DNA of 64,000 nt from Acanthosoma haemorrhoidale (Eukaryota; Arthropoda; Insecta; Hemiptera; Acanthosomatidae): NCBI GenBank assembly GCA_930367205.1, contig OV884014.1, forward strand, positions 111,117,138 to 111,181,137, given 5' to 3'. Both the position numbers and the translations under genes were made by a program. Of this stretch, positions 2,686 to 63,115 are shown in pieces (the stretch's first letter is position 1; each line of letters begins with the position of its first letter). The notes under the pieces were generated by a model that did no database searches, had not been told where the DNA came from, and saw nothing but the letters and a program-made list of their open reading frames with translations.

Positions 2686-3442
2686 TGAATATGCAAGATG
2701 AGGGAACTTCATATTGATGATGACGGCGTCAGTTTGCTTCAGATAAGATGGCTTTCAGGCTGATCCAAGTAAATTTATTCGAAATGCCTATAAAATGACA
2801 AGACTCTGATTTCACTTAGTAAAAAAGTAGTCAGAACCGGGAATATGTCTGACTTCCATTTGATTGTAAGTCACCATTTAGTAGTTTGGTTATATTTGCC
2901 ATTGTTTTTGTTTTAGTAGTGGAGATGTACTTGAATGCTAAGTTTAAAGCAAGGCCCTGATCTGACTTCAGTAAGATTTTTCAGCAGAAACAGTTCAACC
3001 AGCAAACCTCCGAAGTGATGAAGATGTAATTTTGGATGTTGAGGTGTTTTTGAAGCTTAAGTGGCAATGCAAGTGAAACTTTAGGCGAAGAGTTTTGAAT
3101 TTTAATATTGACATTTCAGCTTCAGAAGGGATTGTTGAAACTTTAGTTTTAAATGCAGTCATTGCTGCAGAATTCTGTGAATTATCCCCTTTGTTCTAAA
3201 ATGGCAGATTCTCGGAAGTTGATAGTAATAGCAGTTTTAGATGAAAGCAGTTGGATGTATTATTTTATATTATATTGTATGTATGAATATAAAATATGAA
3301 ATATTTATAAAATATAAAATGAAATTTGTATTGTTTTATTACTGCTTCATAGAAATAACAATTGCTTAATAGAGGGAAAGTAATTATGAACTTGATTGAG
3401 ATAGGATTTAAGAATATTTAACAGCAATTAAAAATAAATTAT

Positions 3443-3448
3443 TTTATT
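3443..3448 (-). terminator. Poly(A) signal of left gene copy
   Basis: AATAAA on the minus strand, about 130 bases past the stop codon at 3577. It is matched by the signal at the equivalent place in the right copy. Confidence 0.55.
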
Positions 3449-3576
3449 TGAATAGGTTATGTACAAAGTAGCTTAACAACTTAAAATCAATAATTATACA
3501 AAATTTACATATATAAAATTTTTACAAGAAGGTTATTCATAAGAATTTCGATAAAAACATTACTTGAACAAAAGTC

Positions 3577-6192
3577 TTAACAATAGCAGGTCATGGAGCC
3601 ATAATTATTTTCACCTGTAAACATAAAAAAAAGTAATTAAAGAAATGAAATGTAGTGGTCAATTTAAATTTTTAAACATTTTGCAAGTTTAATAATAATT
3701 ATTCTTACGTTATCAAGGATAATTAAAAAGGGTTAGTATAATACTTGCCCGCTAACTCATAATACAGAAGAGAAAATTGATAAATATCATTTGATAAAAT
3801 AAATATGTAATTTTATTTTTTGGTGGACTGGATTCGAAAGGAGATATAGAGTTTAAGAGATTTGAAACTAGGAAGAGTGTGTGATACGGAAAGGAATATA
3901 GTTCCAAAGAGACGATGATTCTAATCAGAAAAATATTGTCAAATATTCAAATAAAAGAAATTTGAAAATGTGCGCTGAATTGTGAGATTGAATAACACAG
4001 TAGAAGAAGGAGTTACTGAGCAGGTTAACGATAGTCATTTCAACTCAGAAGTGGAAAAAGGTAGCATGGTTCCGAAGATAAATCATTGGGAACAATTTAT
4101 CTAAAGTAACAAAACTAATTATTAGGAATTGTTTTTGATGCAGAGATTGGATCTTCGTTCTTGATGGTAAGTGATCTGACCCTCTCAGCTGTCATCATTT
4201 GAGAGTTCTTTATTAAACAGAAGATTATTTGACCAAGACAAATATAAAATAAATGACATTTGTTTCAACGTAATTTATCATTGTTGTCAAATAGCCTATG
4301 AATGTTTTCGTCATGAGAAAGCATTTGAATTCACAAAAGTGAAGTTGAATTCATGAAACATGATTTATGACATAAATATGGATTGAGGGAAAAACTTTAT
4401 CTGAGTGGTCAAGTTGGCCAATAATTGTTTCACCTTCCTATTGAATTTGTGGTAGATGGGCCTATACAATTATATTGCCCTGAAGTATTTAAGAACATTG
4501 AGTGAACAGTTGAACAAGTCAATATTAAATTTTAAAAAATCTCTAAATGGAACTTCCACAAAATCGTTTGGGTGCTCCATCAATTGCAGATCCAAACCAG
4601 ATTAAAAAAATGTCCTTTTTAATAACTTCAGTGCGATTTCACTGTTGAATTACTTTAACATCGAGAATTTATTTATTTTTTTCATTAGTGATATCAAACT
4701 AATGGTAAAGGGTTGTAGGGGCTATTGTTTATAGGCGGGGCCGAAAATAAGCCAAATTAGGCATAGACATTTAAACGGTAAATATAATTTCTGAATGAGA
4801 CTACATCTCTTGAAAACATTGACACGCCTACTTAAGGGGGTCGAGTCAAAATATCAGGTGCAAATGTGGGCGGAGTTAAAAAAATTACACCGTATAAGCC
4901 CCGCCCATTTTATATCGTAACACTTCCTAGAACTAACAATCACCGCCGGTTACAAACTGAGTGAGATTGTCACTTGTAATGAACTTAAAATAATTGAATT
5001 AAATAATTAATTTAAAATTACCTGTTAAAAACTCAGGGGCTTCATCTACCTCCCAGATAATGGGCAAGTCGACAGTCTTAGCTCTTTTCCTTCTTGTCGC
5101 TGGCAACGAGGGCTCTTCTTCGACCTCCCAGATGATGGGTAATCTTTCCTTAAATCCTTTCCATGGTATGTACTCTATTCGAAAAAGAAAAATACATGAA
5201 CAGTCAGACTAAAGAAATTAAATAATTGTTAGCCAAAGAAACAAAACTTCCTACTCCTCGGTCAACGACACAATCGTAAGTTTGCGACATTTTTTCCCAA
5301 TATACTACAATGCAAAAAGTATGTTTGTATTTGTTAATAGTTTGTCTGCATTTAAGGCCATCATTAATTATTTAGGACCGGAGATCATGAGGTCCAGGGT
5401 TTGAACCTGTCACTGCATTTTATTCTTTAGCTATTAATTAATAAATTACATATAACCATCAATAATAACTAATAAAAATGTAATAAAATGATTTAAAATA
5501 CGCTCAGATTGTAGTAAATCATTATTTACCTGTCGTTGGCATTGCGGGGGGCCCTTCTTTTACCTCCCAGATCGTGGGCAATCTGTCCTTTTTCACACTT
5601 TTCCCTCGAGCGTACTCTGTTAAACAAGGAAAAATACATGAAAAATTTGATTTAAAATAAATAAATATAATAATAAAATGAATGAAACTTATTTTATAAT
5701 AAAAGAAAAATGACTTTTCGCCAGATATCACGAAATAAATATGCTATCTCATCATGCGAATTGGTGGGAATCTTAAACTTGCAAGTAACCAATTGAAAGT
5801 GTGATAATGTTCACAACAGACACTTTAAAGAATAAAACATTAAAATCCTCCCTCCCCTCCATTTCCACGTCCCGTCATTAAATGTGTTCAATACTTGCTA
5901 TGACAAACAAATAAATAGTACGTATCTATTTAGAATATTTCATAAATAAAACTATCCAACAAGTATTTTTATAAAAATAAATCCTATCAACAACCGGCAA
6001 GAGACTAGGGAGACATATCCACCCCTCTCCAATTCCGACATGCGCATTGAAAGGTTCACTCTTGCTTGGGTCACCTACGGACTCAGTGTAAATAGTGTAT
6101 TTGATCAAATAAGAACAATACATACCTTCAGCTATGGCGATGAACTCCTTCACCGACATCCCTTGGAAGTAATGTACTTTGCACCACCACAT
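3577..6192 (-). CDS. Unrecognised four-exon gene with repeated IWEV motif, left copy
   Basis: I do not recognise this protein. Exons on the minus strand are 6192-6126, 5616-5530, 5174-5022 and 3614-3577. They total 345 nt and give 114 residues plus stop. Every intron starts GT and ends AG, and all three junctions are phase 1. The start is the ATG that opens with MWWCKVHYFQG. Exons 2 and 3 share an E-Y start and together hold three copies of L-P-x-I-W-E-V-x-E, in order near residues 35, 63 and 89. A basic stretch (RRKRAK) lies at about 79-84. The last exon ends ...MTCYC, a C-x-C terminus. There is no signal peptide or membrane segment. Six residues differ from the right copy (V18I, M50T, T54I, S100F, K105N, D107Y, right to left). 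Function is unknown. Confidence 0.6.
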
Positions 6193-6360
6193 CTTGAAAG
6201 AGAAGAGCGACTGTCTGCTGGCACTGCTGGGCACGGTATGCCAAAAACCCTAAACCTTCCTCCTGTTGTCAACTCTCATTGAATAGATGTCGCCACTGTC
6301 GCACACAGTGCTGCCAACACTCTTGCAAATGGCGGCCATTTTATTAAACTTTTTTTTGTT
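6193..6360 (-). promoter_or_regulatory. Putative 5' region of left gene copy
   Basis: The sequence upstream of the left ATG is conserved in the right copy (11470-11640). It contains a YY1-like core, AAATGGCGGCCATTTT, at about 6329-6344. No TATA box is evident. The placement upstream of both genes supports a promoter or 5' UTR, but this is inference. Confidence 0.35.
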
Positions 6361-7084
6361 TCAATCTTGTTTTTTTTTTTAGAGGGGACATCTCAGAAAA
6401 TAAACCATGATAAGAATTGAGTAAAGAAATTACTAAAATCGTTTACTTTATTTAGACCTAATTTGGAGGGTAAAGAGTAATCACAATCTCAATTGGAATA
6501 GTAATTAATTGAAAATGGATAAAACAAATATTACTCCAATTTATTGACTATTGATTATAGGGTAGAAAATTATTTATTTATTATATAACTTCATAATACA
6601 TCCCAATAACAACAAATATCCATTTTCCCCTAGTATTGCAGCACACTTTATGGATTTCTGTGATATTAATTATAGTTTGATAATAAGTAGCCAAGACGTC
6701 CTCAATTGGAAGATTAACCTGATGAATAAGTGGGGTGAGATAATCTATGTGATTGGAGGTCACTATGTTATATGTTAGTCTAAGTATACTAATGTTAGCA
6801 AAGTATTAGTGTAGACGATCAGTTGATACTCCAGTATTACTTAAGTATGTCTACTTTATTAAGCCTATCAGCAAATGATTCAGAGGTTACATAAAACAAA
6901 ATGAATTTGTCATCGGAATGTAAACAATCTGATGTTTAAATATCCCTTCACTATCATTTTTTATTTTGTGTTGGACAACTTAATCAGCTAGGTCAAAATA
7001 GTGGGCTGGTGATTTGTTTTTCGCCTGTCATATTGGGAATAATAATAATTAGTATGTGTAAATAAATTATTACTATAAGTTACT

Positions 7085-7235
7085 AAAGTAAACAGTCTCT
7101 CAGCTGTCATGGCTGACGTCATGACTCATCGATGACGTAGTCTAGTTACCTGCTCGGGGTCTCCCTTATCTTTATATCTGGGCTGGCAAATATTCCAAAA
7201 TTAATTACACCCACTTGGCGATCGTATTTTCAATC
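7085..7235 (+). promoter_or_regulatory. CRE/AP-1-like unit, copy 1
   Basis: A 150-bp unit containing TGACGTCA (7114-7121), TGACTCA (7122-7128) and a second ATGACGTAG, all within about 27 bases, followed by a CTCGGGGTCTCCC block and a TTGGCGATCGTATT edge. The unit recurs at 7850-7995 (inverted), 9855-10005 (direct) and partly at 10965-11015 (inverted). The motifs match CREB/ATF and AP-1 consensus sites; binding is not shown. Confidence 0.5.
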
Positions 7236-7239
7236 CTTC

Positions 7240-7620
7240 TTCAACTTGAAAAGAAAACTTGGGAGGCCTTCGGCCCTTTTACATTCACAAAGGTGAACTG
7301 TTCCAGAGCTGATATCCCATCGCCTAAGAGGCCTCCCTAATTTCCTCGACTAAATGTTGTAAAATCAGTTTGATCCATATAAAATAAACACTTTGAGGGA
7401 AGGTATTCTGTTTTACTATTTATTTCAAAATGCACAGTGCAGTGCAGCTATTGTGGGTTTTACTGTAGACTTTAGAGCATGAAGCCAATATTCTAGTCAA
7501 CCACATGGCATTTTGGTTGGTCTAAACAGCACCAAACTTGGTCATGAACCAAAGCCCTAGAGGTGGTATACCTAAAGTAACTTAATGTCTGGCTATAGTA
7601 TTAAAAAAAAAAAAATTAGT
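7240..7620. repeat. Block E, left copy
   Basis: It matches about 10570-10920 in inverted orientation, including a GGGAGGCCTTCGGCCC block, a short internal inverted GGGAGGCC/GGCCTCCC pair and a GTGCAGTGCAGCTATTGTG segment. In the right copy an open frame of about 100 codons runs through it (10802-11107), but it is not preserved on the left, so I do not call a gene. Confidence 0.6.
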
Positions 7621-7649
7621 CAATTTTCAAGTCATTTTGTTATTATTAT

Positions 7650-7700
7650 ACAAAATTAGACACTGTCTTGGAGGTAGATGAAGTCACTGAGTTCTTTTTT
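7650..7700 (+). pseudogene. Fragment of a third gene copy (plus strand)
   Basis: The stretch encodes DTVLEVDEVTEF, related to the last motif of exon 3 in the intact gene (IIWEVDEAPE). It is the mirror image of the longer fragment at 10140-10290. No splice acceptor or other exons are recognisable here. Confidence 0.5.
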
Positions 7701-7849
7701 TAAAATTAAAAATTATACAATAACTTACAACTTTATGAACAAAAAAAACAATTCTTTTTTACAAACATTTTTTCTGTATTATTAGCAATTATCATTGATG
7801 ATGATATTTATATGTATATTTCATTTGACCAATTCATTTTATTTCTTTA

Positions 7850-7995
7850 ATACGATCGCCAAGTGAGTGTAATTAATTTTGGAATATTTGCCAGCCCAGC
7901 TATAGAAATAAGGGAGACCCCGAGCAGGTAAATTGACTACGTCATCGATGAGTCATGACGTCAGCCATGACAGCTGAGAGACTGTTTACTTTATA
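7850..7995 (-). promoter_or_regulatory. CRE/AP-1-like unit, copy 2 (inverted)
   Basis: Reverse complement of the unit at 7085-7235, keeping TGAGTCA and TGACGTCA side by side. With copy 1 it flanks block E in inverted orientation, making each arm internally symmetrical. Confidence 0.5.
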
Positions 7996-7999
7996 GACT

Positions 8000-8640
8000 G
8001 TTTACTTTAGTAACATATAGTAATAATTTATTTACACAAACTAATTAATATTATTCCCAATATGACAGGCGAAAAACTAATCACAAGCCAGCTATTTTGA
8101 CCTAGCTGATTAAGTTGTCCAACACAGAATAAAACAAGATAGTGCAGGGATATTTAAACATCGGCAAAGACTAACATCGTTTTCCTATTAGCTGAGATGA
8201 AGGACTTAAATAGCAATACTCCACCATTGTAGAATATAGTCAATTAGAATATAGAAAAAACAATATTGCTGCATACAATGGTGCAGGACTTGAAAGTGCA
8301 CATAACGATAAATTGCAAATACTGTGTTTAATTCATTGACTGTCTGAAATTCCAGTCCAAAATGATATTTTGAAAAACTGTAATATATTAGGCAGCGAAA
8401 ATAGCAGAATATCCCCACCAATCTTCGTGTCATTCAATACTTATTTGGCTAAGCAAAAGACAATTCAAGAAAACAACTGGCATTATGAAACTACTTGCAG
8501 AATTAATATCACTGAAATCCATAAAGTGTGCTGCAATACTCGGCAAAATGGAGATTTATTGTTATTGGGATTGATTATGATGTTATATAATAAATAAATA
8601 ATTTGCCACCCTATAATAAATAGTCAATAAATTTGAAAAT
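8000..8640. repeat. Block D, left inner arm of P1
   Basis: It matches about 9305-9850 in inverted orientation and 11020-11300 in direct orientation. It starts after the CRE unit with a CCTAGCTGATTAAGTTGTCC segment. Small open frames on both strands are mirror products of the repeat and are not called. Confidence 0.65.
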
Positions 8641-9304
8641 ATTTGTTTTATCCATTTTCAAATAATTACTATTCCAATTGAAATTGTCCCTGCAAATTTG
8701 GCTACTTGTAAAAATTGTTTAGTTGTAAATGTTGTTTAGTTATTGATTGTAAGCCGTACTGTCCTATTTAAATGAAATATTTTGTTTTCAAGTGCTGTTA
8801 AATATTCTTACCTCTAACACACTGCGACCATACAGCAGTTCATAATTACCTTTCCTTTATTAAGCATTTATAAAAAAGTTAATCATTTATTTTAGTTTTC
8901 AAAACTCTACATGGTTAAAGATGAAAAATATTTTTCACTTTTGCCCTAATAGTCCCTCCCCACTAGCTCTCGTAGTCCTAAAAAGTGGTGATTTGTTTTT
9001 GTCTTACAGATATTGACATAACATGATTACTTGTTACTCATAGACAGTGCGCAGAAGTGTCTGCAATATGACTCAGCAGACCTTCCTTTAGAAGATAGGG
9101 TTTGTAGCCTATATCAATTTATCAATTTGAGTTTATGCTAAATAATATGTGCGCCTATAAATTTGAAACGCAATGAAATAAAAAAAAACACACATTATTT
9201 TAGGACATTAACCCTTAACAATAACAAATAAGTATGTCTATGTGACAAAAAAGGCAATATCGTTGGAACCTACTGAATTTGTTAGTGATTTCGTAAAAAT
9301 ATTT
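8641..9304. other. Unpaired core of P1
   Basis: This is the spacer between the inner inverted arms. About 8690-8880 resembles the sequence after the stop codon in the right gene copy (14570-14730, sharing AAGTGCTGTTAAATATTCTTA), so the centre seems to hold a gene 3' end remnant. I see no gene in the rest. Confidence 0.5.
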
Positions 9305-9850
9305 AACAGCACTTGAAAATCTCAATTTTGCCGAGTATTGCAGCACACTTTATGGATTTCAGTGATATTAATTCTGCAAGTAGTTTCATAATGCCAGTTG
9401 TTTTCTTGAATTGTCTTTTGCTTAGCCAAATAAGTATTGAATGACACGAAGATTGGTGGGGATATTCTACTATTGCCTCTGCCTAATATGTTAAAGTTTT
9501 TCTAAATATCATTTTGGACTGGAATTTCATACAGAAAATGAATTAAACACAGCATTTGCAATTTATCGTTATGTGCACTTTCAAGTCCTGCACCATTGTA
9601 TTCAGCAATATTGTTTTTTCTATATTCTAAGTGACTATATTCTACAATGGTGGAGTATTGCTATTTAAGTCCTTCATCTCAGCTAATACGGAAACGATGT
9701 TAGTCTTTTCCGATGTTTAAATATCCCTGCACTATCTTGTTTTATTTTGTGTTGGACAACTTAATCAGCTAGGTCAAAACAGCTGTGATTTCTTTTTCGC
9801 CTGTCATATTGGGAAGAATAGTAATTAGTTTGTGTAAATAAATTATTACT
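9305..9850. repeat. Block D, right inner arm of P1
   Basis: Inverted partner of 8000-8640, including the mirrored TGCAGCACACTTTATGG segment. That segment also occurs near 6650. Confidence 0.65.
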
Positions 9851-9854
9851 ATAT

Positions 9855-10005
9855 GTTCCTAAAGTAAACAGTCTCTCAGCTGTCATGGCAGACGTCATGA
9901 CTCATCGATGACGTAGTCAATTTACCTGCTCGGGGTCTCCCTTATCTTTATACCTGGGCTGGCAAATATTCCAAAATTAAAAACACCCACTTGGCGATCG
10001 TATTA
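9855..10005 (+). promoter_or_regulatory. CRE/AP-1-like unit, copy 3
   Basis: Direct copy of the 7085 unit. The first CRE is altered (AGACGTCA), while TGACTCA and ATGACGTAG are kept. A partial inverted copy lies at 10965-11015. Confidence 0.45.
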
Positions 10006-10139
10006 AAGAAATAAAATGAATTGGTCAAATGAAATATACATATAAATATCATCATCAATGATAATTGATAATAATACAGAACAAATGGATTTTTTTGTGT
10101 TTGATTTGAAGAATTGTTTTTTTTTTGTTCATAAAGTTG

Positions 10140-10560
10140 TAGGTTATTGTATAATTTTTAACTTAAAAAAAATTAACCTATTTTTAGGAACTCAGTGACT
10201 TCATCTACCTCCAAGACAGTGTCTAATTTGTCCATCTTAGCTGTTTTCCTTGGTGCACACTATTTGAAAAATAAAACTCACATGAACAGAATATTGAAGG
10301 AAAGTGAATAATTTTATTCAAAGAAAAAAAAAGGCACATTTGTCAATTTGCGATATTTTTTCAGAATGTCCGGGCGATGACCGGAGATCATAAGGCCAGG
10401 ATTTGAACCCTAGTCCTGAAACTGCATTTTATTACCTAGCTAATAATTAATAAATTACATTTCACAATCATTAATAACTAATACAAATGTAAGAAAGTAT
10501 GTCACAAAATAACCTAAAAATTAAACTTTATGAATAATTTTTTTTTTTAATACTATAGCT
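10140..10560 (-). pseudogene. Decayed third copy of the IWEV gene
   Basis: On the minus strand a stretch at about 10255-10185 encodes CAPRKTAKMDKLDTVLEVDE, aligning with the second half of exon 3 in the intact copies. The splice acceptor has changed: the AG before the exon is lost, so the surviving AG belongs to the old exon. About 10370-10500 matches intron 2 of the intact genes, including a tRNA-like B-box region. Exons 1, 2 and 4 are not seen. Confidence 0.55.
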
Positions 10561-11469
10561 AGGCATTAAGTTACTTTAGGTATACCACCTCCAGGGCTTT
10601 GGTTCATGACCAAGTTTGGTGCTGTTTAGACCAACCAAAATGCCATGTGGTTGACTAGAATGTTGGCTTCATGATCTAAAGTCTACGGTAAAACCCACAA
10701 TAGCTGCACTGCACTGTGCATTTTGAAATAAATAGTAAAACAGAATACCTTCCCTCAGAGTGTTTATTTTACATAGATCAAACTGATTTAACAATATTTA
10801 GTTGAGGAAACTAGGGAGGCCTCTCAGGCGATGGGATATCAGCTCTGAAACAGTTCACCTTTGTGAATGTAAAAAGGGCCGAAGGCCTCCCAAGTTTTCT
10901 TTTCAAGTTGAAGTTAACTTCAGGTTTAAACCTGAATTGTTGTTGTGTGAGACAGGATTGAAAATACGAGTGATGACGTCAGCCATGACAGCTGAGAGAC
11001 TGTTTACTTTAGTAACTTATAGTAATAATTTATTTACACAAACTAATTACTATTGTTCTCAATATGACAGGCGAAAAACAAATCACAAGGCAGCTATTTT
11101 GACCTAGCTGATTAAGTTGTCCAACACAGAATAAAACAAGATAGTGCAGGGATATTTAAACATCGGAAAAGACTAACATCGTTTTCGTATTAGCTGAGAT
11201 GAAGAACTTAAATAGCAATACTCCACCATTGTAGAATATAGTCACTTAGAATATGGAAAAAACAATATTGCTGCATACAATGGTGCAGGAGGAACTGGAA
11301 TAATATTTGTTTTATCCATTTTCAATTAATTACTATTACAATTGAAATTCTAATTACTCTTCACCCTCCAAATTAGGTCTAAAGAAAGCAAACGATTTTA
11401 GTAAATTCTTTACTCAATTCTTATCATGGTTTATTTTCTGAGATGTCCCCTCTAAAAAAAAAACAAGAT

Positions 11470-11640
11470 TGAAACAGAAAAAAGTTTAATAAAATGGCCG
11501 CCGTTTGCAAGAGTGTTGGTAACACTGTGTGCGACAGTGGCGACATCTATTCAATGAGAGTTGACAACAGGAGGAAGGTTTAGGGTTTTTGGCATACCGT
11601 GCCCAGCAGTGCCAGCAGACAGTCGCTCTTCTCTTTCAAG
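11470..11640 (+). promoter_or_regulatory. Putative 5' region of right gene copy
   Basis: Conserved counterpart of 6193-6360, with AAAATGGCCGCCGTTTGC at about 11491-11508 (YY1-like core, one change from the left copy). An upstream in-frame GTG at 11599 is open to the ATG at 11641 but is not a plausible start. Confidence 0.35.
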
Positions 11641-14514
11641 ATGTGGTGGTGCAAAGTACATTACTTCCAAGGGATGTCGGTGAAGGAGTTCGTCGCCATA
11701 GCTGAAGGTATGTATTGTTCTTATTTGCTCAAATACACTATTTACACTTTGTCTGTAGGTGACCCGAGCAAGAGTGAACCTTTCAATGCGCATGTCGGAA
11801 TTGGAGAGGGGTGGATTTTTCTCCCTAGTCTCTTGCCGGTTGTTGATAGGATTTATTTTTATAAAAATACTTGTTGAATAGTTTTTTATTTAAGAAATAT
11901 TCTAAAAATATATGCACTATTGCATGATGGTAGCAAACATTATTAAATTAGAATTATGACACTCTAACATTAGTTAGTGCTCTGTGGGACTATTTATTTG
12001 TTTGTCATACCAAGTAGTGAAATTATCTAGTATTGAACACATTTAATGAAGGGACGTGGGAAGGGAGGGGAGGGAGGATTTTAAAGTTTTAATAACTTTT
12101 TGTATTAATATTACACCGTAGCACCAAAACGTAAAACATAATTAAATTGTTCATCGTGAACTTTAATTTATTAATTTGTTACTTGTTTCGATAGGAAAAT
12201 ATTTAGTTTTTAAAGAAATTGATTAATTACTAATTGTTTGTTTTATTCTAAGTGTCTGTTGTGGAAATTATCACACTTTCAATTGGTTACTTGCAAGTTT
12301 AAGATTCCCACCAATTCGCATGATGATGTAGCATATTTATTTCGTGATATCTGGCGAAAAGTCATTCTTCTTTTATTATAAAATAAGTTTCATTCATTTT
12401 ATTATTATATTTATTTATTTTAAATCAAATTTTTCAAGTATTTTTCATTGTTTAACAGAGTACGCTCGAGGGAAAAGTGTGAAAAAGGACAGATTGCCCA
12501 CGATCTGGGAGGTAAAAGAAGGCCCCCCCGCAATGCCAATGACAGGTAAATAATTATTTACTACAATCTGAGCGTGTTTTAAATCGTTTTATTACATTTT
12601 TCATTTTTATTAGTTATTATTGATGGTTACATGTAATTTAGTAATTAATAGCTAAAGAATAAAATGCAGTGACAGGTTCAAATCCCGGACCTCATGATCT
12701 CCGGTCCTAAATAATTATTGATGGCCTTAAATGCAGACAAACTATCAACCAATACAAATATACTTTTTCTGTTGTAGTATACTGAAAAAAAAATGTCGCA
12801 AACTTACGATTGTGTCGTTGACCGGAGAGAAGGAATTTTTGGTTCTTTGGCTAACAATTATTTATTTTCCTTAGTCTGACTGATCATGTATTTTTCTTTT
12901 TCAAATAGAGTACACACCATGGAAAGGATTTAAGGAAAGACTACCCATCATCTGGGAGGTCGAAGAAGAGCCCTCGTTGCCAGCGACAAGAAGGAAAAGA
13001 GCTAAGACTGTCGACTTGCCCATTATCTGGGAGGTAGATGAAGCCCCTGAGTCGTTAACAGGTAATTTTGTATTAATTAATTAATTCAATTATTTTAAGT
13101 TCATTACAAGTGACAATCTCACTCAGTTTGTACCCGGCGGTGATAGTTAGTTCTAGGAAGTGTTATGATTGAAAATGGGAGGGGCTTATACGGTGTAATT
13201 TTTTAACTCCGCCCACATTTATGCACCTGATATTTTGGCTCCGCCCCCTTAAGTAGGCGTGTCAATGTTTTCAAGAGATGTAGTCTCATTCAGAAATTAT
13301 ATTTACCGTTTAAATGTCTATGCCAAATTTTGGTTATTTTCGGCCCCGCCTATAAACAATAGCCCCTACAACCCTTCACCATTAGTTTGATATCACTAAT
13401 GAAAAAACAAATAAATTCTCGACGTTAAAGTAAGTAAACAGCGAAATCGCACTGAAGTTATTAAAAAGGACAATTTTTTGATGTGGTTTGGATCTGCAAT
13501 TGATGGAGCACCCAAAAGATTTTGTGGAAGTTCCCATTTAGAGATTTGTTTTTAAATTTAACATGGACTTGTTCAACTGTTCGCTCAATGTTTTTTAATA
13601 ATTCAGCGCAATATAATTGTATGGGCCCATCTACCACAAATTCAATAGGAAGGTGAAACAATTATTGGCCAACTTGACCACTCAGATAAAGTTTTTCCCT
13701 CAATCCATATTTATGTCATAAATCATGGTTCATGAATTCAACTTAACTGTTGTGAATTCAAATGCTTTCTCATGACGAAAACATTCATAGGCTATTTGAC
13801 AACAATGATAAATTACGTTGAAACAAATGTCATTTATTTTGTATTTGTCTTGGTCAATTCATCAATTCTCTGTTTAATGAAGAACTCTCAAATGATGACA
13901 GCTGAGAGGGTTAGATTACTTACCATCAAGAACGAAGATCCAATCTCTGCATCAAAAACAATTCCTAATAATTAGCTTTGTTACTTTAGATAAATTGTTC
14001 CCAATGATTTATCTTCGGAACCATGCTACCTTTTTCCAGTTCTGAGTTGAAATGACTATCGTTAACCTGCTCAGTAACTCCTTCTTCTACTGTGTTATTC
14101 AATCTCACAATTCAGCGCACATTTTCAAATTTCTTTTATTTGAATATTTGACAATATTTTTCTGATTAGAATCATCGTCTCTTTGGAACTATATTCCTTT
14201 CGGTATCACACACTCTTCCCAGTTTCAAATCACTTAAACTCTATATCTCCTTTCGAATCCAGTCCACCAAAAAATAAAATTACATATTTATTTTATCAAA
14301 TGATATTTATCAATTTTCTCTTCTGTATTATGAGTTAGCGGGCAAGTATTATACTAACCCTTCTTAATTATCTTTGATTTCGTAAGAATAATTATTATTA
14401 AACTTGCAAAATGTTTAAAAATTTAAATTGACTACTACATTTCATTTCTTTAATTACGTTTTCTTTTTGTTGACAGGTGAAAAAAATGATGGCTCGATGA
14501 CCTGCTATTGTTAA
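11641..14514 (+). CDS. Unrecognised four-exon gene with repeated IWEV motif, right copy
   Basis: Exons are 11641-11707, 12459-12545, 12909-13061 and 14477-14514. They total 345 nt, 114 residues plus a TAA stop. Donors read GTATGT, GTAAAT and GTAATT; acceptors end TTTAACAG, CAAATAG and TTGACAG. All junctions are phase 1, so internal exons could be duplicated or dropped without breaking the frame. Exon 1 gives MWWCKVHYFQGMSVKEF. Exon 2 holds one L-P-x-I-W-E-V-K-E motif; exon 3 holds two, around a basic RRKRAK segment. Exon 4 ends TCYC. Acidic and proline residues follow each motif. I know of no family with this layout. The C-x-C end resembles the geranylgeranylation signal of Rab proteins, but with so little else that is only a suggestion. 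Its mirror copy is at 3577-6192. Confidence 0.62.
13461..13790 (-). pseudogene. Possible decayed coding segment inside intron 3
   Basis: An antisense open frame (13661-13461) begins MFHLPIEFVVDGPIQLYC and ends at a stop near 13461. Upstream sequence on the same strand keeps open segments in other frames, suggesting frameshifts. The left-arm counterpart (about 4430-4620) has a stop and frameshifts. Composition looks protein-like, but I cannot name a family; it may be a decayed transposon protein. Confidence 0.25.
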
Positions 14515-14642
14515 GACTTTTGTTCAAGTAATGTTTTTATCGAAATTCTTATGAATAAGCTTCTTGTAAACATTTTATATATGTAAATGTTGTATAATTA
14601 TTGATTTTAAGTTGTTAAGCTACTTTGTACATAACCTATTCA

Positions 14643-14648
14643 AATAAA
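14643..14648 (+). terminator. Poly(A) signal of right gene copy
   Basis: AATAAA 129 bases after the stop codon, at the same relative position as in the left copy. Confidence 0.55.
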
Positions 14649-15836
14649 ATAATTTATTTTTAAGTGCTGTTAAATATTCTTAAATCCTATCTCAATCAAG
14701 TTCATGATTACTTTTCCTCTATTAAGCAATTGTTATTTCTATGAAGCAGTAATTAAACAATACAAATAACAACTCATACATACAATATAATATAAAATAA
14801 TGCATCCAACTGCTTTCTTCTAAAACTGGTATTACTATCAACTTTCGAGAAACTGCCATTTTAGAACAAAGGGGATAATTCACAGAATTCTGCAGCAATG
14901 ACTGCAATTCAAAACTAAAGTTTCAACAATCCCTTCTGAAGCTGAAACGTCAATATTAAAATTCAAAACTCTTCGCCTAAAGTTTCACTTGCATTAGCTC
15001 TTAAGCTTCAAAAACACCTCAACGTCCAAAATTACATCTTCATCACTTCGGAGGTTTGCTAGTTGAACTGTTTCTGCTGAAAAACCTTACTGAAGTTTAC
15101 CAACTTGAGCTGGTTCATTAATCTTTCATTCACTAAGTTAAGTTGTCAGATCAGGGCATTGCTTTAAACTTGAAGAAGTGATATTTTGTGCGTTGGATTC
15201 TTGGGCTTATTTATTTGGGTAAGTAGATCACCCAATTGGTAATTACATAATTGGGTGATTGTCTACCTTAAAAGATATATTTCTGGATAAATGATAAACA
15301 TAAATAAAGTTGGATTTTCGTAACCAGTCGGATTATTGATTTTCTAGGATAACTATATTGAGAATTGTTTACTTTTCTAAATTTACGGAAGCCCTCACCT
15401 ACACATAATTTTATTTATCTGTATCTTCAATTCAAGCTGTGATTTTATACAACAAACGTTAAAAAGAGTTTGGCGAACAAAGGCGATCACAAGTTACCTA
15501 GTTGCATAATTCATTCGTCAATTTCCTAACGATACATTCAACGGTTTAACAGCGATGCGGGATTTAAAAATGTTATGCTGTGATAAACCAGTTTCGACTG
15601 TCTTAAAAATAAAATTTTAAAGACGTTTTAGTGTCTGCAGCCCGACTGATTATTTTTTAATGCAGAATATTTTGGAAATTATGTATGGTTTATATGTTAT
15701 CGTGATGTCATTATTAGACGAAATATATACTTAAGTGTATACAAATAAATATTACGTGTAATGCAAAAATACAATTTTCACTCGATAACATGCTAATCAA
15801 AAACACATAAACATCTAAATAATAAGATTCACTTAC

Positions 15837-15865
15837 ATTTCGTTGCTTTTTGTGAACAGCTCCAT
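15837..15865 (-). other. Exon-like start with consensus donor, left P2 arm
   Basis: On the minus strand an ATG opens nine codons (MELFTKSNE) and runs into a perfect GTAAGT donor. The identical 29 bases lie in the other arm at 19801-19829. A related mini-exon (ATGCTAAAGACAACAAAAG then GTTAGT) is at 17197-17179, minus strand. I could not find the next exon. Confidence 0.25.
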
Positions 15866-16423
15866 TCTCAAGTGACTAGCTGGATAAATGACCAAGATTC
15901 CGAGTTAATTATTATCAGGATGTAAACCACATTGATGTTACAGTGATTTAATAACACGTTATAAGACATCTGCACGAAAGTAAACTTATTTCACGAACAA
16001 AAGTACATAAAACTAATAACATCCGTCCCGCAAGAAGTAGAATTTGGAACTAGCGAGCACTGAGCACCTTGGCCGGGGGTACAAAGATCAAATGCAAGAA
16101 CCTGTGCGAACATGTAGCCCAGCTGTTTCCAATAGTACGCAATACTTCAGAAATTGTTTAAAATATCCCAATAATATTATTATTATTAGTTGATATTTAT
16201 GTATTTATTAATTAATTTTACAACAAATTCTAAAATTTGAAAATGCAAGTAGTACAGCTTTTGTTCTGTTGTTTTCTTTCTTTATGCGTGTTTAATCATA
16301 CCATATATTTGTTTTGAACATTTGTTTTATCCGAAGATATGAAAACATTTGTTGTGTTATACATATTTTCATCTGTTAATTTATATTCGTTCATATCTGT
16401 TGTATTCATTTGATCGAAAAGTA

Positions 16424-16780
16424 ACAAGAATTTTTGTTCATATTAAAAAGTTTTTAAATTCATCGACAGCAATTTAATACTACATAATAATACACTTGTG
16501 CCAGTGCTGCTGGCCAAATACGGTGGCTGAGCTAACACAACAGTGTTGCTTTTTGCAAAAAAATTACGAACAATCAGTGAGATGTGAGCGGGAGCGTTAT
16601 CGTGATGCGATTTCCACGAATTGTTTTGCGACAATTCCTGTCGTTTTCGTCGGATCGCTTCACGTAAACGGCGCATTACTTCCAAGTAATATACTTTATT
16701 GACATTACGACCTTCTGGCAGCAACTCATGATGCACTATGCCATTGAAATCGAAAATAAGACCGTGATTATAATTCTCGT
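16424..16780 (-). mobile_element. Mariner remnant, copy 3 (357 bp)
   Basis: It is TA-flanked with ACGAGAATT-like termini. Minus-strand coding sequence keeps HHELLPEGRNVNKVYYLEVM, a DDNAPAH-type catalytic block (here HHDNAPAH), and stops at PPYL; the SPDLAPCDF to KRW segment is deleted. The deletion differs from those in copies 1 and 2, so the three copies decayed separately after duplication. Confidence 0.8.
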
Positions 16781-17345
16781 TATTTTTTTATCCAACTTTA
16801 CTTTTTCCATTACATATAAATCCTTTTATCCGGATTACCTATCACTCACTACATACCTTTCTAGTGGTTCCTTGATTTTGATTTTTTTTTAAATTTCCAC
16901 CTGCCTAGTCGTTGTGAAGCCATGCTAGATAAAGCCATGTAATTTTACAAGAAGACCTCACTTGACATTGCAGAGAAATGTAAAATATTTCAGGTATCTC
17001 CATAAAACATTAATTAATTAATAATCAACAATTAATTTCAGTATCGTATCAAATTAGGCATCGGACCGTCATGAATGGCAATATTTAAGTATATAAAAAT
17101 ATATGTCAGAATTGTTTTCACTCGATAACTTGCTGCAATTAAAAACTATTAATGTCTTAATAATACAGATCCACTAACCTTTTGTTGTCTTTAGCATTCA
17201 ATTTCTGTTTGGTTCTTTCTATAAACTATATTTGCAAAAAGTCATTAAACATTTCATTAACACCGTGTTCGAGTTTTCATTCAATTTCATTAATACTGTA
17301 AAGCAGTATTAGCAACTCGTTTTAGCATACGAGGTCGAAGGAGTT

Positions 17346-18104
17346 TTATCATTCCAACACAACATCCACTAATGACCAAGGCTAGATAATTGTGTTCAGA
17401 TTTGTCAAGTTTATTAGATGTAGCGCGCGCTGCTCATTCAGAAAAATAAAATGAAATTTATCTGCTTAACTAAACGGTTTTACTAAGATACTTGACTAAA
17501 CTGTACGTAAACCATTACTGGACCAAATATTAAACAAATGTGATCGAGCTTTAATTTAATTTATTTCACTTAAAAGTTCCATAATACCAAATTATTATTG
17601 TATTATACTAATGACACTTTTTTTGATGTTCTGGGCTGTCATCGCAAGGTTCTGTAAGCTTAAATTCATTCGAAGATATTCCATGAAAGTAGGTAGTCAT
17701 GGAAGATTACAATTAGCTTGGTCCACCATGTTCAAAAACCTTACACTCACTGAATCCAGTGAAATTTGCATCAATTTAGTTCTAAAGCTTTTGATGAACA
17801 TGAAACCGCAAATGGAATTATTTAACTCGTAAGTTAAATTGGACTAGAGGGAATTATCATTAGTGAGCTAGTTGCAGTAGTGGCTCATAGATGGCGCAGC
17901 AATGCCGACATGGCCGGAAGTAACACCGCCAATATGACGAGGTTTGAATTGTTTTATTACAGTTTAAGCTATTTCTCTCTTTAGGGGTCTCTAAGCATGC
18001 ATTTATAATTGCAATAGACAAACGTGTGGTTGTTTACGGCTAAATAAAAACATAAAATCAATAATATTAATTGCATTAATACATATGATAATAATGATTA
18101 TTAC
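17346..18104. repeat. Spacer of P2, mostly block A sequence
   Basis: About 17605-18104 is the start of the second block A copy (compare 365-860). It includes an ATGGCGCAGCAATGCCGACA segment also found at 623. Bases 17346-17600 hold nothing I recognise. Confidence 0.6.
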
Positions 18105-18643
18105 TCTCCTTCAGCCTCGTATGCTAAAATGGGCTGCTACTACTGCCTTAAAGCTTCGAACACGGTGTTAATGAAATGTCTAATGACGTTTTGCAAATAC
18201 AGTTTATAGAAAGAACAAAACAGAAATTGAATGCAAACAGCACTTAGTGGATCTGTATTATTAAGACATTAATGAGTTTTTAATTGTAGCAAGTTATCGA
18301 GTGAAAACAATTTTGACATATATTTGTATATACTTAAATATTGCCATTCTTGAAGGTCAGATGCCTAATTTAATACGATACTGAAATTAATTGTTGATTA
18401 TTAATTAATTAATGTTTTATGGAGATACCTGAAATATTTTACATTTCTCTCCAATGTCAAGTGAGGTCTTCTTGTAAAATTACATCGTTTTATCTAGCAT
18501 GGCTTCACAACGACTAGGCAGTTGGAAATTTAACAAAAAAAAAAAATCAAGGAACCACTAGAAAGGTATGTAGTGAGTAATAGGTAATCCCGAGGGCAGG
18601 GATTTATAAGTAATGGAAAAAGTAAAGTTGGATAAAAAAAATC

Positions 18644-19147
18644 ACGAGAATTTTATAATCACTGTTTGCTTTGTTTTTATTTCGATGGTGAATCATGAGT
18701 TGCTGCCAGAAGGTCGTAGGTCAATAAAGCATATTACTTGGAAGTAATGCGCCGTTTACGTGAAGTGATCCGACGAAAACGACAGGAATTGTGGCAAAAA
18801 AATTCGTGGAAATTGCATGACGATAATGCTCCCGTTCATACCTCACTGATTGTTTGTAATTTTTTTGCAAAAAACAACTGTTGTGTTACTTCAGCCACCG
18901 TAACCACCGGACATGGCTCCCTGTGAATTCTTATTTGAGTTGGTAAACACCTTGAAAAGACGACGTTTTGACACCATTGATGAGATAAAAGAAGATTCGC
19001 TGAAGGAGCTAAGAGCTATATCGAAAAGTGAGTTTGAAAAATGCTTCGAAGATTGGAAAAAGCGCTGGCACCAGTGTATTATTATGTATTATTAAATTGC
19101 TGTCGATGAATAAATAAAAAAAAATTAAGATGAACAAAAATTCTCGT
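18644..19147 (+). mobile_element. Mariner remnant, copy 2 (504 bp)
   Basis: The longest of the three related copies. Left end ACGAGAATTTT at 18644, right end AAAATTCTCGT before TA at 19148. Two overlapping plus-strand frames (18738-18926 and 18913-19095) give EVMRRLREVIRRKRQELWQK, HDDNAPVHTSLIV, then LKRRRFDTIDEIKEDSLKEL and EDWKKRWHQCI. A frameshift separates them near the C-terminal catalytic region, and the first catalytic aspartate region is missing. This fits a mariner transposase C-terminal half. Confidence 0.85.
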
Positions 19148-19800
19148 TACTTTTTGATCAAATGAATATAAGATATATGAATGAATATTAATTAACAGAT
19201 AAAATATGCATGAGGATATTTTCACAGAAATGTGTAACTAAAAATGAGAAACATGTGAAAACCAAAATGCAAAAACTGTAAGACCAGTTCTCAAAATTTT
19301 ATATACACAACAAATATTTTTAATACCTTAGGATGAAACAAATGTTAAAAAGAAATATACGATATGAATAAACAGGCATAAAGAAAGAAAACAAGGAAAC
19401 AAAAGCTGTTTGTACTTCATGCATTTTCAAATTTTAGAATTTGTTGTGGTTGTTGTAAAACCAATTAATAAATACATTAATGTCAGCTAATAATAATATT
19501 ACTGGGATATTTTAAACAATTTCCGAAATATTCCGTAGTATTGGAAACAGCTGGGCTACATGTTCGCACAGGTTCTTGCATTTGATCTTTGTACCCCCGG
19601 CCAAGGTGCTTGCTAGTTCCAAATTCTACTTCTTGCGAAACGGATATTATTAGTTTTATGTACTTTTGTTCGTGAAATAAGTTTACTTTCGTGCAGATGT
19701 CTTATAACGTGTTATTAAATCACTGTAACATCAATGTGGTTTACATCCTGATAATAATTAACTCGGAATCTTGGTCATTTATCCAGCTAGTCACTTGAGA

Positions 19801-19829
19801 ATGGAGCTGTTCACAAAAAGCAACGAAAT
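19801..19829 (+). other. Exon-like start with consensus donor, right P2 arm
   Basis: Same 29 bases as 15865-15837: ATG plus nine codons and two bases, then GTAAGT. Preservation in both arms may only reflect recent arm identity. No downstream exon was identified. Confidence 0.25.
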
Positions 19830-20759
19830 GTAAGTGAATCTTATTATTTAGATGTTTATGTGTTTTTGATTAGCATGTTATCGAGTGAAAATTGTATTTT
19901 TGCATTACACGTAATATTTATTTGTATACACTTAAGTATATATTTCGTCTAATAATGACATCACGATAACATATAAACCATACATAATTTCCAAAATATT
20001 CTGCATTAAAAAATAATCAGTCGGGCTGCAGACACTAAAACGTCTTTAAAATTTTATTTTTAAGACAGTCGAAACTGGTTTATCACAGCATAACATTTTT
20101 AAATCCCGCATCGCTGTTAAACCGTTGAATGTATCGTTAGGAAATTGACGAATGTATTATGCAACTAGGTAACTTGTGATCGCCTTTGTTCGCCAAACTC
20201 TTTTTAACGTTTGTTGTATAAAATCACAGCTTGAATTGAAGATACAGATAAATAAAATTATGTGTAGGTGAGGGCTTCCGTAAATTTAGAAAAGTAGACA
20301 ATTCTCTATATAGTTATCCTAGAAAATCAATAATCCGACCTGTTACGAAAATCCGACGTGCAGTTTATCATTTATCCAGAAATATATCTTTTAACGTACA
20401 CAATTCTCTAATTACCCAAATAAATAAGCCCAAAAATCCAACGCACAGATTATCTCTTTTCCGAACCGAATAAATTTTAATTCAAAACAGAGTATATTGT
20501 TATATATTGTAGCATGTATATTGCATAGCTCCCAAAGAAATATGTAACAATAAGGAAGAATATGTTATACATGTAAAATAAAATTAACCTAAATTCACAT
20601 GAATGATACAGCAAATTAACCCACCGCTCTTTCCAAGAAGAAGAAAGATTTCCAATTTGTGGATATTTTAGCTTTCAAAAATATTTTTAGCTGAAAAAAC
20701 ATTGGTCATTTTAAAACGAAATTGTATTTTACACAGATTATTGAAGGTATATAATGAGT

Positions 20760-43381: not shown

Positions 43382-44248
43382 CAGTGGTCGGCAAACTTAT
43401 TAGCCAAAGAGCCAAATTTGAACATTACAACAATTTAAAAAAAAATTGGGAGCCAAATCTGCTTGTTTAGTAATCTTTTATTACACTAAATAAGTAGTAC
43501 ACTAAATAAAACTAAATTTCATACTTAATAAATATTTATTAATGCGAACAATGTGCTTGCATCTCCTTGGAAAGTTTTAGTAAGTCAGGTTTTGTATGTT
43601 GTTGTTTTTAATTTTAGCAATGATTCCAAGTTTTCATCAATAATACGACTTCTCAGTTTACTCTTGATAATGTTCATGCTTGAAAAAGATTGTTGGCATA
43701 TATATGTAGAACCGAAAAGGGAAAGAACAGCAAAGGCGAGCTTTTTCAGCTGATCGTAAGAGTCAGGAATACTGTTCCAAGCGTTGAAAATGATCATGTC
43801 TTCCTTCTCCAGGTCATTCAAAGCAGACCACTTGTGTTGTGAACTAAGATCACATTTTTTCTTATCCAATATTTCCAATTCAACACAAAGACGTTCGAAT
43901 TTAGAGCGCCTTGTTTTTTAAATCAGGCAATTGTATTTCAAAGCTACCAATGTCAATTGCAAAAGGAGAAAATTTCAACTCGGCTATCGTAGCATTAAGA
44001 GGATTTTTGACAAATGCTAAAGTTGCTCTGCTGTTTTTAAATTCCTGAAACCTGCTGAGAAATACTTCCCTCATATTTAAAATTATAGAAGAATTTTAAT
44101 TTATCAAAATAAGATGTAATTTTTTTCTTACCAAGTTTTTTTTTAAATGAAAATATTATTGCGCCTTCCGTGGATATTTGTGCTAGAGCCACACTTAAGG
44201 AGCCAAAGAGCCACATGCGGCTCTGGAGCCGCACACTGCCGACCACTG
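43382..44248 (-). mobile_element. hAT element, internally deleted (867 bp)
   Basis: The ends are CAGTGGTCGGCAAAC and its inverted copy closing at 44248, with subterminal GAGCCACATGCGGCTC sequence. The 8-base flanks TTCTAGGA (43374-43381) and GGCTAGGA (44249-44256) match at 6 of 8 positions. These are hallmarks of hAT elements. An autonomous member would be about 2.5 kb or more, so most is missing. Confidence 0.85.
43585..44090 (-). pseudogene. hAT transposase C-terminal part
   Basis: The minus frames give REVFLSRFQEFKNSRATLAF, SPFAIDIGSFEIQLPDLKNK, then after a stop and frameshift ERLCVELEILDKKKCDLSSQ, FNAWNSIPDSYDQLKKLAFA and STYICQQSFSSMNIIKSKLR. This is the C-terminal hAT dimerisation region (the S-T-...C-Q-S-F-S-M-N-K motif is diagnostic), similar to transposases related to GTF2IRD2/ZBED5-type proteins. 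The zinc finger and most of the RNase H-like core are missing. Confidence 0.85.
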
Positions 44249-46930: not shown

Positions 46931-46985
46931 GGAATATTCCTATAATATTTGGGAAGTTCTAATAGGCCGAAGACCCATTTAATAT

Positions 46986-47295
46986 GTTGTACTTGCGGGG
47001 TAACATGGCATATAGTGTTGTACTTGTGGGGTAACATGGCATATAGTGTTGTACTTGCGGGGTAACATGGCATATAGTGTTGTACTTGCGGGGTAACATG
47101 GCATATAGTGTTGTACTTGCGGGGTAACATGGCATATAGTGTTGTACTTGCGGGGTAACATGGCATATAGTGTTGTACTTGCGGGGTAACATGGCATATA
47201 GTGTTGTACTTGCGGGGTAACATGGCATATATTGTTGTACTTGCGGGGTAACATGGCATATAGTGTTGTACTTGCGGGGTAACATGGCATATAGT
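46986..47295. repeat. Minisatellite, 31-bp unit, ten copies
   Basis: The unit starts GTTGTACTTGCGGGGTAACA. Ten near-perfect copies occur; one has T for C in GCGGGG and one has ATTG in place of GTG. The unit length is not a multiple of three and the minus strand has no stop in any frame, so three overlapping long ORFs (46819-47386) appear. These are artefacts of the repeat. Confidence 0.95.
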
Positions 47296-47790
47296 GTTGA
47301 AATTTCGCTTGGTGATTGATGACAATGACAGCTCGTACCAAAGGGGTGAACGAACAATATAGTATAAAAGTAACTTTTAGGCGCAAAGTATCGAACTTGT
47401 TAAAAAAAAATCATCTTTTCTGATCTTATTTTTTTCTGGCTAATAGTTATCAAAACCGTTGCGAACACCATCAAATTCAAACTGCCCGAAACCAGTTGTA
47501 GTCAATTGTCACATTCCAAACGATTCAAAGAGCCTTCAAAATAGAAGAAAGAAGACCATCTAAAAAATAACAAAGTATTGTTTTTACAGACATACATAGG
47601 AAATAGAGATGTAGCAGTAATTAAATAAGAAAACTATGATTTGAGCTGAGCAGCAAGCAACAGTGCAGAGAGAGAGAGAGCGCGTATTCACTTCACGTGT
47701 CCGATTGTCTGAAAAGCTCAGAAGTTCTGCCTTGTATTGTGTATTCCTGCCTACAGCGAATGAGAGAGCTGTGTATTTCGGCCAGTCATA
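47296..47790. other. Sequence without recognised genes
   Basis: A (GA)n run lies at about 47671-47680. Nothing else recognised. Confidence 0.35.
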
Positions 47791-56805: not shown

Positions 56806-57282
56806 TTACATTGTCTGCTGCCAGCTATTGTAAACGAGGAGTGCGTAATACTCGTATCCCAAAAGCATGACTGAAATAATGAAGGAATAAAAAGACCTGG
56901 CAGTGTTGTGATTGTCCGCTAATGCTAAGATGAGAAAGATGATGATCAGCAAAGCTAAAACCAGAAGCAATATCAGATTGATGATGACCGCCACGATGAG
57001 TACGTTGGGTAAGTTGCCGTGTATGAAGCAGACGATGACGAGTATGCCAGAGACGAGGAAAGCTAGGCAGATGGCTATGATAAGGAAAAGCCACCAGTCC
57101 TCGTTGCAAGTGCTGTTGTATGAGCAGTCGTGTTTGTGGAAGTGCCAGCCAAACGCCAAGGCGACGGCGAAAAACACGATCTGCCACACGGCCGTAATTA
57201 ACGAACCCTTGTCCAGCTCGTCGATGCAAAATCCCAGGCAGCATAAGGTCTTGTCCAACTTCGGCAACCAGTCGAACTTCAT
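56806..57282 (-). CDS. Small four-pass membrane protein, probable host gene (158 aa)
   Basis: A clean open frame starts at ATG 57282 and ends TAA at 56806. A short cytosolic head has a C-C-x-x-G-F-C cluster (residues 14-19). Hydrophobic segments lie at about 28-46, 65-86, 93-121 and 132-151. The loop between the first two has two cysteines and an N-S-T glycosylation site (residue 56). The C-terminus is LVYNSWQQTM. This layout resembles small arthropod tetraspan proteins of the type labelled DUF4728 or MARVEL-like; I cannot assign one family firmly. Just upstream, TTATAG/GTGTG is a plausible splice acceptor (exon start 57294), so a non-coding first exon probably lies beyond the mariner insert. 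It is not a degraded element, having no stops, a natural composition and its own poly(A) signal. Confidence 0.75.
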   Translation of the reverse strand: MKFDWLPKLDKTLCCLGFCIDELDKGSLITAVWQIVFFAVALAFGWHFHKHDCSYNSTCNEDWWLFLIIAICLAFLVSGILVIVCFIHGNLPNVLIVAVIINLILLLVLALLIIIFLILALADNHNTARSFYSFIISVMLLGYEYYALLVYNSWQQTM

Positions 57283-57327
57283 TTTCCTTCACACCTATAA
57301 CAAACAATGTCACATTACTTGGAATTA

Positions 57328-62600: not shown

Positions 62601-62624
62601 TTTCGGTATTGTTTTTCTCATTAC

Positions 62625-63115
62625 ATGTTTGCCTACTTGTCTTTATTCATGTTTGCCTATTTGTCTATTTTCATGTTTGCCTATTTGTCTATTTACATGT
62701 TTGTCTACTTGTCTTTATACATGTTTGTCTATTTGTCTATTTACATGTTTGCCTATTTGTCTATTTACAAGTTTGCCTATTTGTCTATTTACATGTTTGT
62801 CTATTTGTCTGTATATATGTTTGTCTATTTGTCTCTTTACATGTTTGTCTATTTCTCTGTATATATGTTTCTCTATTTGTCTCTTTACATGTTTGTCTGT
62901 ATATATATTTGTCTATTTGTCTCTTTACATGTTTGTCTATTTGTCTGTATATATGTTTGTCTACTTGTCTCTTTACATGTTTGTCTATTTGTCTCTTTAC
63001 ATGTTTGTCTATTTGTCTGTATATATGTTTGTCTATTTGTCTCTTTACATGTTTGTCTATATGTCAGTATACGTACATGTTTCTCTATTTGTCTCTTTAC
63101 ATGTTTGTCTATGTT
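62625..63115. repeat. Minisatellite, 24-bp unit, about 20 copies
   Basis: The unit is roughly TTTGTCTATTTGTCTCTTTA plus CATG, with variants (GTATATATG in place of TTTACATG). Because the unit is a multiple of three, every open frame is long and repetitive (patterns such as MFVYLSLY); these are not genes. Confidence 0.95.

What the first reader, a model, noticed from the sequence alone, without database searches (positions are those of the whole stretch)
3577..14514. Two intact, mirror-image copies of an unknown four-exon gene
Both copies keep the same 114-codon frame, the same three phase-1 introns with GT-AG ends and the same poly(A) signal, although introns carry indels. Three copies of an L-P-x-I-W-E-V-x-E motif occur in the protein. 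Counting by eye, about six residue changes stand against about three silent ones, so the coding sequence itself does not yet show strong constraint. Such a short, modular, motif-repeating protein with phase-1 exons could be a lineage-specific gene or cargo of a mobile element.
Basis: partly seen in the sequence, partly recalled or inferred. Interest (0 to 1): 0.85.

Follow-up and report, generated by a model that had tools for sequence, protein, structure and literature searches.

The report
Three-copy orphan gene with repeated motif
A small four-exon gene with no relatives found so far sits in three intact copies, two side by side and one flipped, at a single place in what is probably an arthropod genome; differences between the copies suggest that selection keeps its protein, whose job is not known.

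Summary
Copies A (minus, 6192-3577) and B (plus, 11641-14514) each encode 114 residues in four exons with three phase-1 GT-AG introns and AATAAA 128 nt after the stop. A whole-genome search found a third intact copy, C, 9.7 kb left of A in the same orientation; all ten protein matches in 866 Mb belong to this one cluster. So it is a local cluster (C minus, A minus, B plus), not only a mirror pair. Units A and B also hold decayed remnants of an older copy. Nine of ten genome-wide motif hits are these copies' own. Mobile cargo is not supported: two tested stretches of unit DNA matched only this cluster, bar one weak hit. Best reading: a lineage-restricted host gene beside a TraB-family gene. Its action (flexible multivalent binding peptide) is inference. 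Ordinary in kind, unmatched in sequence.

The parts
6126..6192 (-). copy A exon 1 (start codon at 6192)
5530..5616 (-). copy A exon 2 (first LPxIWEVxE, 5555-5581)
5022..5174 (-). copy A exon 3 (second and third motif, 5116-5142 and 5041-5067)
3577..3614 (-). copy A exon 4 with stop codon
3443..3448 (-). copy A AATAAA, 128 nt after the stop
11641..11707 (+). copy B exon 1
12459..12545 (+). copy B exon 2 (motif 12494-12520)
12909..13061 (+). copy B exon 3 (motifs 12941-12967 and 13016-13042)
14477..14514 (+). copy B exon 4 with stop codon
14643..14648 (+). copy B AATAAA, 128 nt after the stop
2940..8557 (.). unit A, left arm of the inverted duplication (main matches 2965-8557, plus a 27-nt match at 2940-2966)
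9293..15171 (.). unit B, right arm, inverted (main matches 9317-15096, plus 27-nt matches at 9293-9319 and 15145-15171)
10178..10261 (-). remnant T' of an older copy: exon-3-like, 84 nt, open, one repeat unit deleted, I-W of the motif lost
   Evidence: dN 0.29 and dS 0.31 against copy A, 0.33 and 0.25 against copy B
10379..10496 (-). remnant of intron 2 of the older copy, 81-82% identical to A and B
7653..7694 (+). stub T, mirror counterpart of T' in unit A
8701..8869 (+). 3' end and flank of the older copy, 71-72% identical to those of A and B
6928..8162 (.). inner inverted repeat inside unit A (arms 6928-7228 and 7849-8162); part of what it holds lies in the other orientation in unit C

Best explanation
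A small host protein-coding gene, lineage-restricted as far as could be tested, that duplicated locally: first an older copy that has since decayed (T), then a roughly 6-kb unit to three copies (C and A in tandem, B inverted). SHOWN from sequence: three intact four-exon copies at one locus; fewer exon than intron differences; fewer residue changes than the intron rate predicts; no exon indels; a decayed older copy that evolved without detectable constraint. INFERRED: that the copies are transcribed and spliced as modelled; that the 114-residue product is a soluble, largely unstructured peptide; that it works through three spaced LPxIWEVxE motifs binding a partner several times over, perhaps in the nucleus (a basic RRKRAK stretch; recalled as signal-like, not tested); that extra copies raise dose. 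My odds: real gene under purifying selection 0.85; multivalent-motif action 0.3; nuclear site 0.2.
For: All three copies are open over 345 nt with every splice dinucleotide kept. Variable sites among the three: exons 11 of 345, introns 187 of 2257, Fisher P = 4.3e-4; exons 1-3 alone 7 of 307, P = 4.4e-5. Residue-changing variable sites 8 against 22.7 expected at the intron rate, P = 2.3e-4. Indel events: exons 0, introns 18, 2.75 expected in exons. The three internal repeats differ mostly at third codon positions (4, 7, 15 at positions 1, 2, 3). Exon GC far above intron GC. All 10 protein matches in the genome fall in this cluster; 9 of 10 motif-pattern hits are the copies' own. Remnant T shows dN about equal to dS. 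Soluble, acidic: pI 5.5, best 19-residue hydropathy 0.5, for A and B. Neighbour: TraB-family gene 1.3 kb from unit C.
Against: No transcript data. A against B alone is weak (circular shifts: 0.17 on substitutions, 0.19 on indels, 0.046 on both), and the indel deficit alone is not significant (P = 0.063). Silent sites are low too (3 against 5.7, P = 0.17) and C-B has dS = 0, so gene conversion or constraint on the RNA may share in the deficit; against silent sites dN/dS is 0.46 (A-B) and 0.25 (C-A) and undefined for C-B. Given nine changed codons in A-B, six residue changes is unremarkable (P = 0.28). Exon 4 varies freely (4 of 38) and GC-rich non-exon windows also vary less than average (5.1 per 87 against 8-9; exon windows 0-2). 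The internal-repeat test (P = 0.009) counts three non-independent comparisons. The binding mechanism rests on motif repetition alone; the exon 3 model is poor (one sequence, mean pLDDT 65, pTM 0.13).
Confidence: 0.75

Rival explanations
1. Non-functional duplicates: a gene, or a chance open frame, carried along in young segmental duplications and intact only because little time has passed.
For: Arms differ by only about 5%; A-B alone gives P = 0.17 for the exon deficit; silent sites are low as well; the older copy T decayed at dN about equal to dS.
Against: Residue-changing sites among three copies are 8 against 22.7 expected (P = 2e-4); both A and B intact under neutrality in 3.3% of trials, before counting C; internal repeats differ mainly at third positions.
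Confidence: 0.12
2. The inverted units act as a source of hairpin RNA and small interfering RNAs, as at D. simulans hairpin loci; the coding look is inherited from the target gene.
For: Long inverted arms; 400 of 622 21-mers of the modelled A mRNA recur in the B mRNA; a D. simulans cluster holds hairpins together with full-length copies of a short gene (passages of PMC10317233).
Against: A and B are transcribed outward from the centre, so their own promoters make no hairpin; the inward-facing remnants share at most 14 nt with the A or B mRNA; residue-level constraint is not expected of a hairpin arm. No small-RNA data.
Confidence: 0.06
3. Cargo or accessory gene of a mobile element, the palindrome being a composite element.
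For: Inner inverted repeats of about 300 nt; mariner-type transposase fragment in the neighbouring palindrome.
Against: Two tested stretches of unit DNA match only this cluster in 866 Mb apart from one weak hit (the tool skips very common words); no coding match to a transposase in the units was found among the frames scanned; by eye no target-site duplication at the outer ends.
Confidence: 0.03
4. A secreted effector of the aphid bicycle type.
For: Small gene, internal exons beginning at codon position 2 as in bicycle genes (2 of 2 here), a literal C-Y-C at the C-terminus, no sequence relatives.
Against: Four exons against a minimum of five; the published structural classifier gives 0.0015-0.014 for all three copies against a cut-off of 0.72; one C-Y-C, not two; no hydrophobic N-terminal stretch seen (best 19-residue hydropathy 0.5).
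Confidence: 0.02

Closest known systems
Taxonomically restricted (orphan) genes expanded by local duplication
   Same: No detectable relatives, small product, copies side by side at one locus.
   Different: Internal motif repeats and uniform phase-1 introns. Lineage depth could not be measured because no related eukaryote genome is held.
Gene-bearing palindromes of Folsomia candida (PMC5490193, passages seen)
   Same: Arthropod gene copies arranged as inverted duplications: 11 of 15 within-scaffold collinear blocks were palindromes.
   Different: Those blocks hold known genes (e.g. Dscam2); here the units are about 6 kb, with one unknown gene and an added tandem unit.
D. simulans tHMG hairpin cluster (PMC10317233, passages seen)
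   Same: A short gene amplified locally in both orientations, full-length copies beside degenerate ones.
   Different: There hairpins make Dcr-2-dependent siRNAs; here gene orientation is outward, inner remnants share at most 14 nt with the mRNA, and no small-RNA data exist.
Aphid bicycle genes (PMC9168663, passages seen)
   Same: Fast-evolving small genes without relatives; internal exons begin at codon position 2.
   Different: Exon number, classifier score, number of C-Y-C motifs and N-terminus do not fit.

Membership tests
Lineage-restricted protein-coding gene | intact frame with splice sites in all copies | tested here: met
   3 of 3 copies
Lineage-restricted protein-coding gene | residue changes rarer than neutral | tested here: met
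   8 against 22.7 expected at the intron rate, P = 2e-4; weaker against silent sites
Lineage-restricted protein-coding gene | transcribed and spliced | not testable with these tools
   no RNA data held
Lineage-restricted protein-coding gene | absent from other lineages | tested here: inconclusive
   no match; no arthropod proteome searched
Mobile-element cargo | dispersed copies of the unit | tested here: not met
   cluster only, apart from short weak non-exon matches (3, 1)
Mobile-element cargo | terminal repeats with target-site duplication | tested here: not met
   read by eye at about 2940 and 15171; no duplication seen
Hairpin RNA locus | one transcript through both arms | not testable with these tools
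   gene orientation argues against it
Hairpin RNA locus | siRNAs from the arms | not testable with these tools
   no small-RNA data
Bicycle genes | internal exons start at codon position 2 | tested here: met
   2 of 2 internal exons (definition)
Bicycle genes | structural classifier score above 0.72; at least five exons | tested here: not met
   0.0015-0.014 for three copies; four exons
Bicycle genes | two C-Y-C motifs | tested here: not met
   one literal C-Y-C; three cysteines in all

The most novel reading that the evidence does not exclude
A protein family new to science that works by three tandem LPxIWEVxE linear motifs, whose locus is being amplified in both orientations under genetic conflict (for example germline drive and suppression), with decayed inward-facing copies and intact outward-facing ones.
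Probability: 0.07. Interest if true: 0.65.

Novelty: new member of a known kind. Interest (0 to 1): 0.33.

Why it matters
It is a compact case of an unplaced gene caught with its duplication history legible: exon-level repeat growth, an old decayed copy, then recent tandem and inverted copies whose coding exons resist change while introns drift. It also shows that two copies can be too few to detect constraint and three enough. If the motif protein is expressed it would found a new family; if not, it is a well-marked example of segmental duplication.

Tried and rejected
Protein relatives: Pfam, PDB sequences, the protein collection with the full product and with exon 3: nothing. The third and last protein search went to an intronless frame at 56806-57288 in the hope of placing the organism: 697 candidates, none at E <= 0.001. 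Viral and prokaryote contigs: 75 and 595 pattern stretches, no relative. Full-text search for 'IWEV': 53 papers, the 20 listed unrelated. Rfam over the window: no match. Exon 3 peptide folded without an alignment: no structure, so no fold search was made.

Rejected: assembly artefact from fold-back reads (inferred: about 5% divergence, long indels, unequal arms and a spacer do not fit); mobile cargo; bicycle membership. I first took the bicycle 'phase 2' as a difference; it is the same thing as intron phase 1 here, since the next exon begins at codon position 2, and the report says so.

Not answered: DNA search of the genome with the second palindrome and the TTAGG telomere pattern meant to support an arthropod origin. 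The host is therefore placed by guess only.
Full report
OBSERVATION. The finding is exact. Copy A on the minus strand and copy B on the plus strand each join four exons (67, 87, 153 and 38 nt) into a 345-nt frame of 114 residues plus stop, through three phase-1 GT-AG introns, with AATAAA 128 nt after the stop. Nine codons differ: six residue changes, three silent. Exons 1-3 are 46-54% GC in introns of 29-32%. The two copies lie in inverted arms, 2965-8557 and 15096-9317, with interruptions; introns differ by 4.1-7.3% and 13 indel events, exons by 2.9% and no indel.

A THIRD COPY. A DNA query across exons 1-3 found a third full-length match left of the window, and three short matches elsewhere that fall in intron sequence of the query, not in exons. 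The protein query, at E <= 10, gave ten matches, all in this cluster (the tool warns that counts are lower bounds). Copy C (G000:C4:111110971-111113590, minus strand, window -6166 to -3547) has all four exons, the same length and the same splice sites. A poly(A) signal follows its stop by 139 nt (that script reported the distance correctly but printed the wrong letters for it). Unit C repeats unit A in direct orientation, so the cluster reads C minus, A minus, B plus, over 20.7 kb from stop to stop.

CONSTRAINT. Among the three copies 11 of 345 exon sites vary against 187 of 2257 intron sites (Fisher P = 4.3e-4); for exons 1-3 it is 7 of 307 (P = 4.4e-5). Eight residue-changing sites vary against 22.7 expected at the intron rate (P = 2.3e-4); three silent sites against 5.7 (P = 0.17). 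Exons have no indel event where 2.75 are expected (P = 0.063). Against this: A and B alone give only P = 0.17; silent sites are low too and C-B has none, so conversion between copies or constraint on the RNA may contribute; exon 4 is unconstrained (4 of 38); GC-rich non-exon windows also vary less than average, though more than exon windows. I read this as probable purifying selection on exons 1-3.

HISTORY. Exon 2 and the first part of exon 3 are related, including the ends of the introns before them (5110-5224 against 5549-5667, 72%), so the repeated motif grew by duplication inside the gene; the three repeats differ 4, 7 and 15 times at codon positions 1, 2 and 3. An older gene copy, T, faces the other way inside units A and B: an 84-nt exon-3-like piece at 10178-10261, intron 2 at 10379-10496, a mirror stub at 7653-7694 and a 3' end at 8701-8869. 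Exons 1, 2 and 4 of T were not found between 6500 and 11300 beyond short chance-level matches; exon 2's best match there is to T's own exon 3. Its dN and dS against A are 0.29 and 0.31: no constraint. Unit C keeps the 3' end of T (93% identical, -1492 to -1357) but no exon-3 piece was found. Part of the segment between the inner inverted repeats lies in the other orientation in C, as a flip between the repeats would produce (inference).

NOT A MOBILE ELEMENT, AS FAR AS TESTED. The inner unit DNA 6900-8560 gave 14 matches, all in the cluster. The outer stretch 2900-3600 gave nine, eight in the cluster and one of 77 bases at 76% on another contig. A 27-place pattern for LPxIWEVxE gave ten hits: nine from the three copies and one on another contig whose frame stops four residues after the motif; the backward control pattern gave two. 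By eye no target-site duplication flanks the palindrome. To the left, six exon-like segments stitched by eye match the TraB family (PF01963, E = 4.9e-20; three single-segment queries did not), ending 1.3 kb before unit C. So the cluster lies beside an ordinary host gene.

WHAT IT DOES. No family or fold was found. The product is acidic (pI 5.5) without a hydrophobic segment (A and B only). Three spaced copies of one short motif, with a basic stretch between the second and third, suggest a flexible peptide that grips a partner at several points; this is inference from layout alone and I give it 0.3. Gene copies point outward from the palindrome centre, so their own transcripts would not fold on each other; inward-facing remnants share at most 14 nt with the mRNA. 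A hairpin-RNA role is thus unlikely but untested.

KNOWN THINGS. Gene palindromes are on record in the springtail Folsomia candida (PMC5490193, passages), and local two-way amplification of a short gene with hairpins in D. simulans (PMC10317233, passages). Bicycle genes share the exon phase but fail the published classifier (0.0015-0.014 against 0.72; PMC9168663, passages; arithmetic). Papers otherwise were seen only as listings. I conclude: a new, unplaced gene of an ordinary kind, real with good probability, function open.

Noticed in passing
15176-20458, and 369-1796: A second palindrome begins where the first ends; its left arm holds a Transposase_1 (mariner-type) frame at 16443-16787 (E = 5.2e-7), and 369-1796 repeats 17607-19352 in direct orientation.
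   Followed up: partly
11494-11583 (+), 6250-6339 (-), and the same place in copy C: An upstream frame of 29 codons (MAA...RRKV) precedes exon 1 in all three copies, in frame with the main start and separated from it by one TAG.
   Followed up: partly
about 860 and 18127 (+): Read by eye: a short frame starting MGCYY is shared by the two direct copies 369-969 and 17607-18237; possibly another small gene.
   Followed up: no
window -16497 to -8869 (L024-L025): Exons of a TraB-family host gene (PF01963) on the plus strand, just left of unit C.
   Followed up: partly
56806-57288 (-): Intronless 160-codon frame rich in hydrophobic segments; weak DUF6962 match below the curated cut-off, no homologue at E <= 0.001.
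   Followed up: partly
46985-47307 and 62612-63112: Tandem repeats open in several frames.
   Followed up: no
43585-43917 (-): hAT dimerisation-region match, E = 1.8e-5.
   Followed up: no
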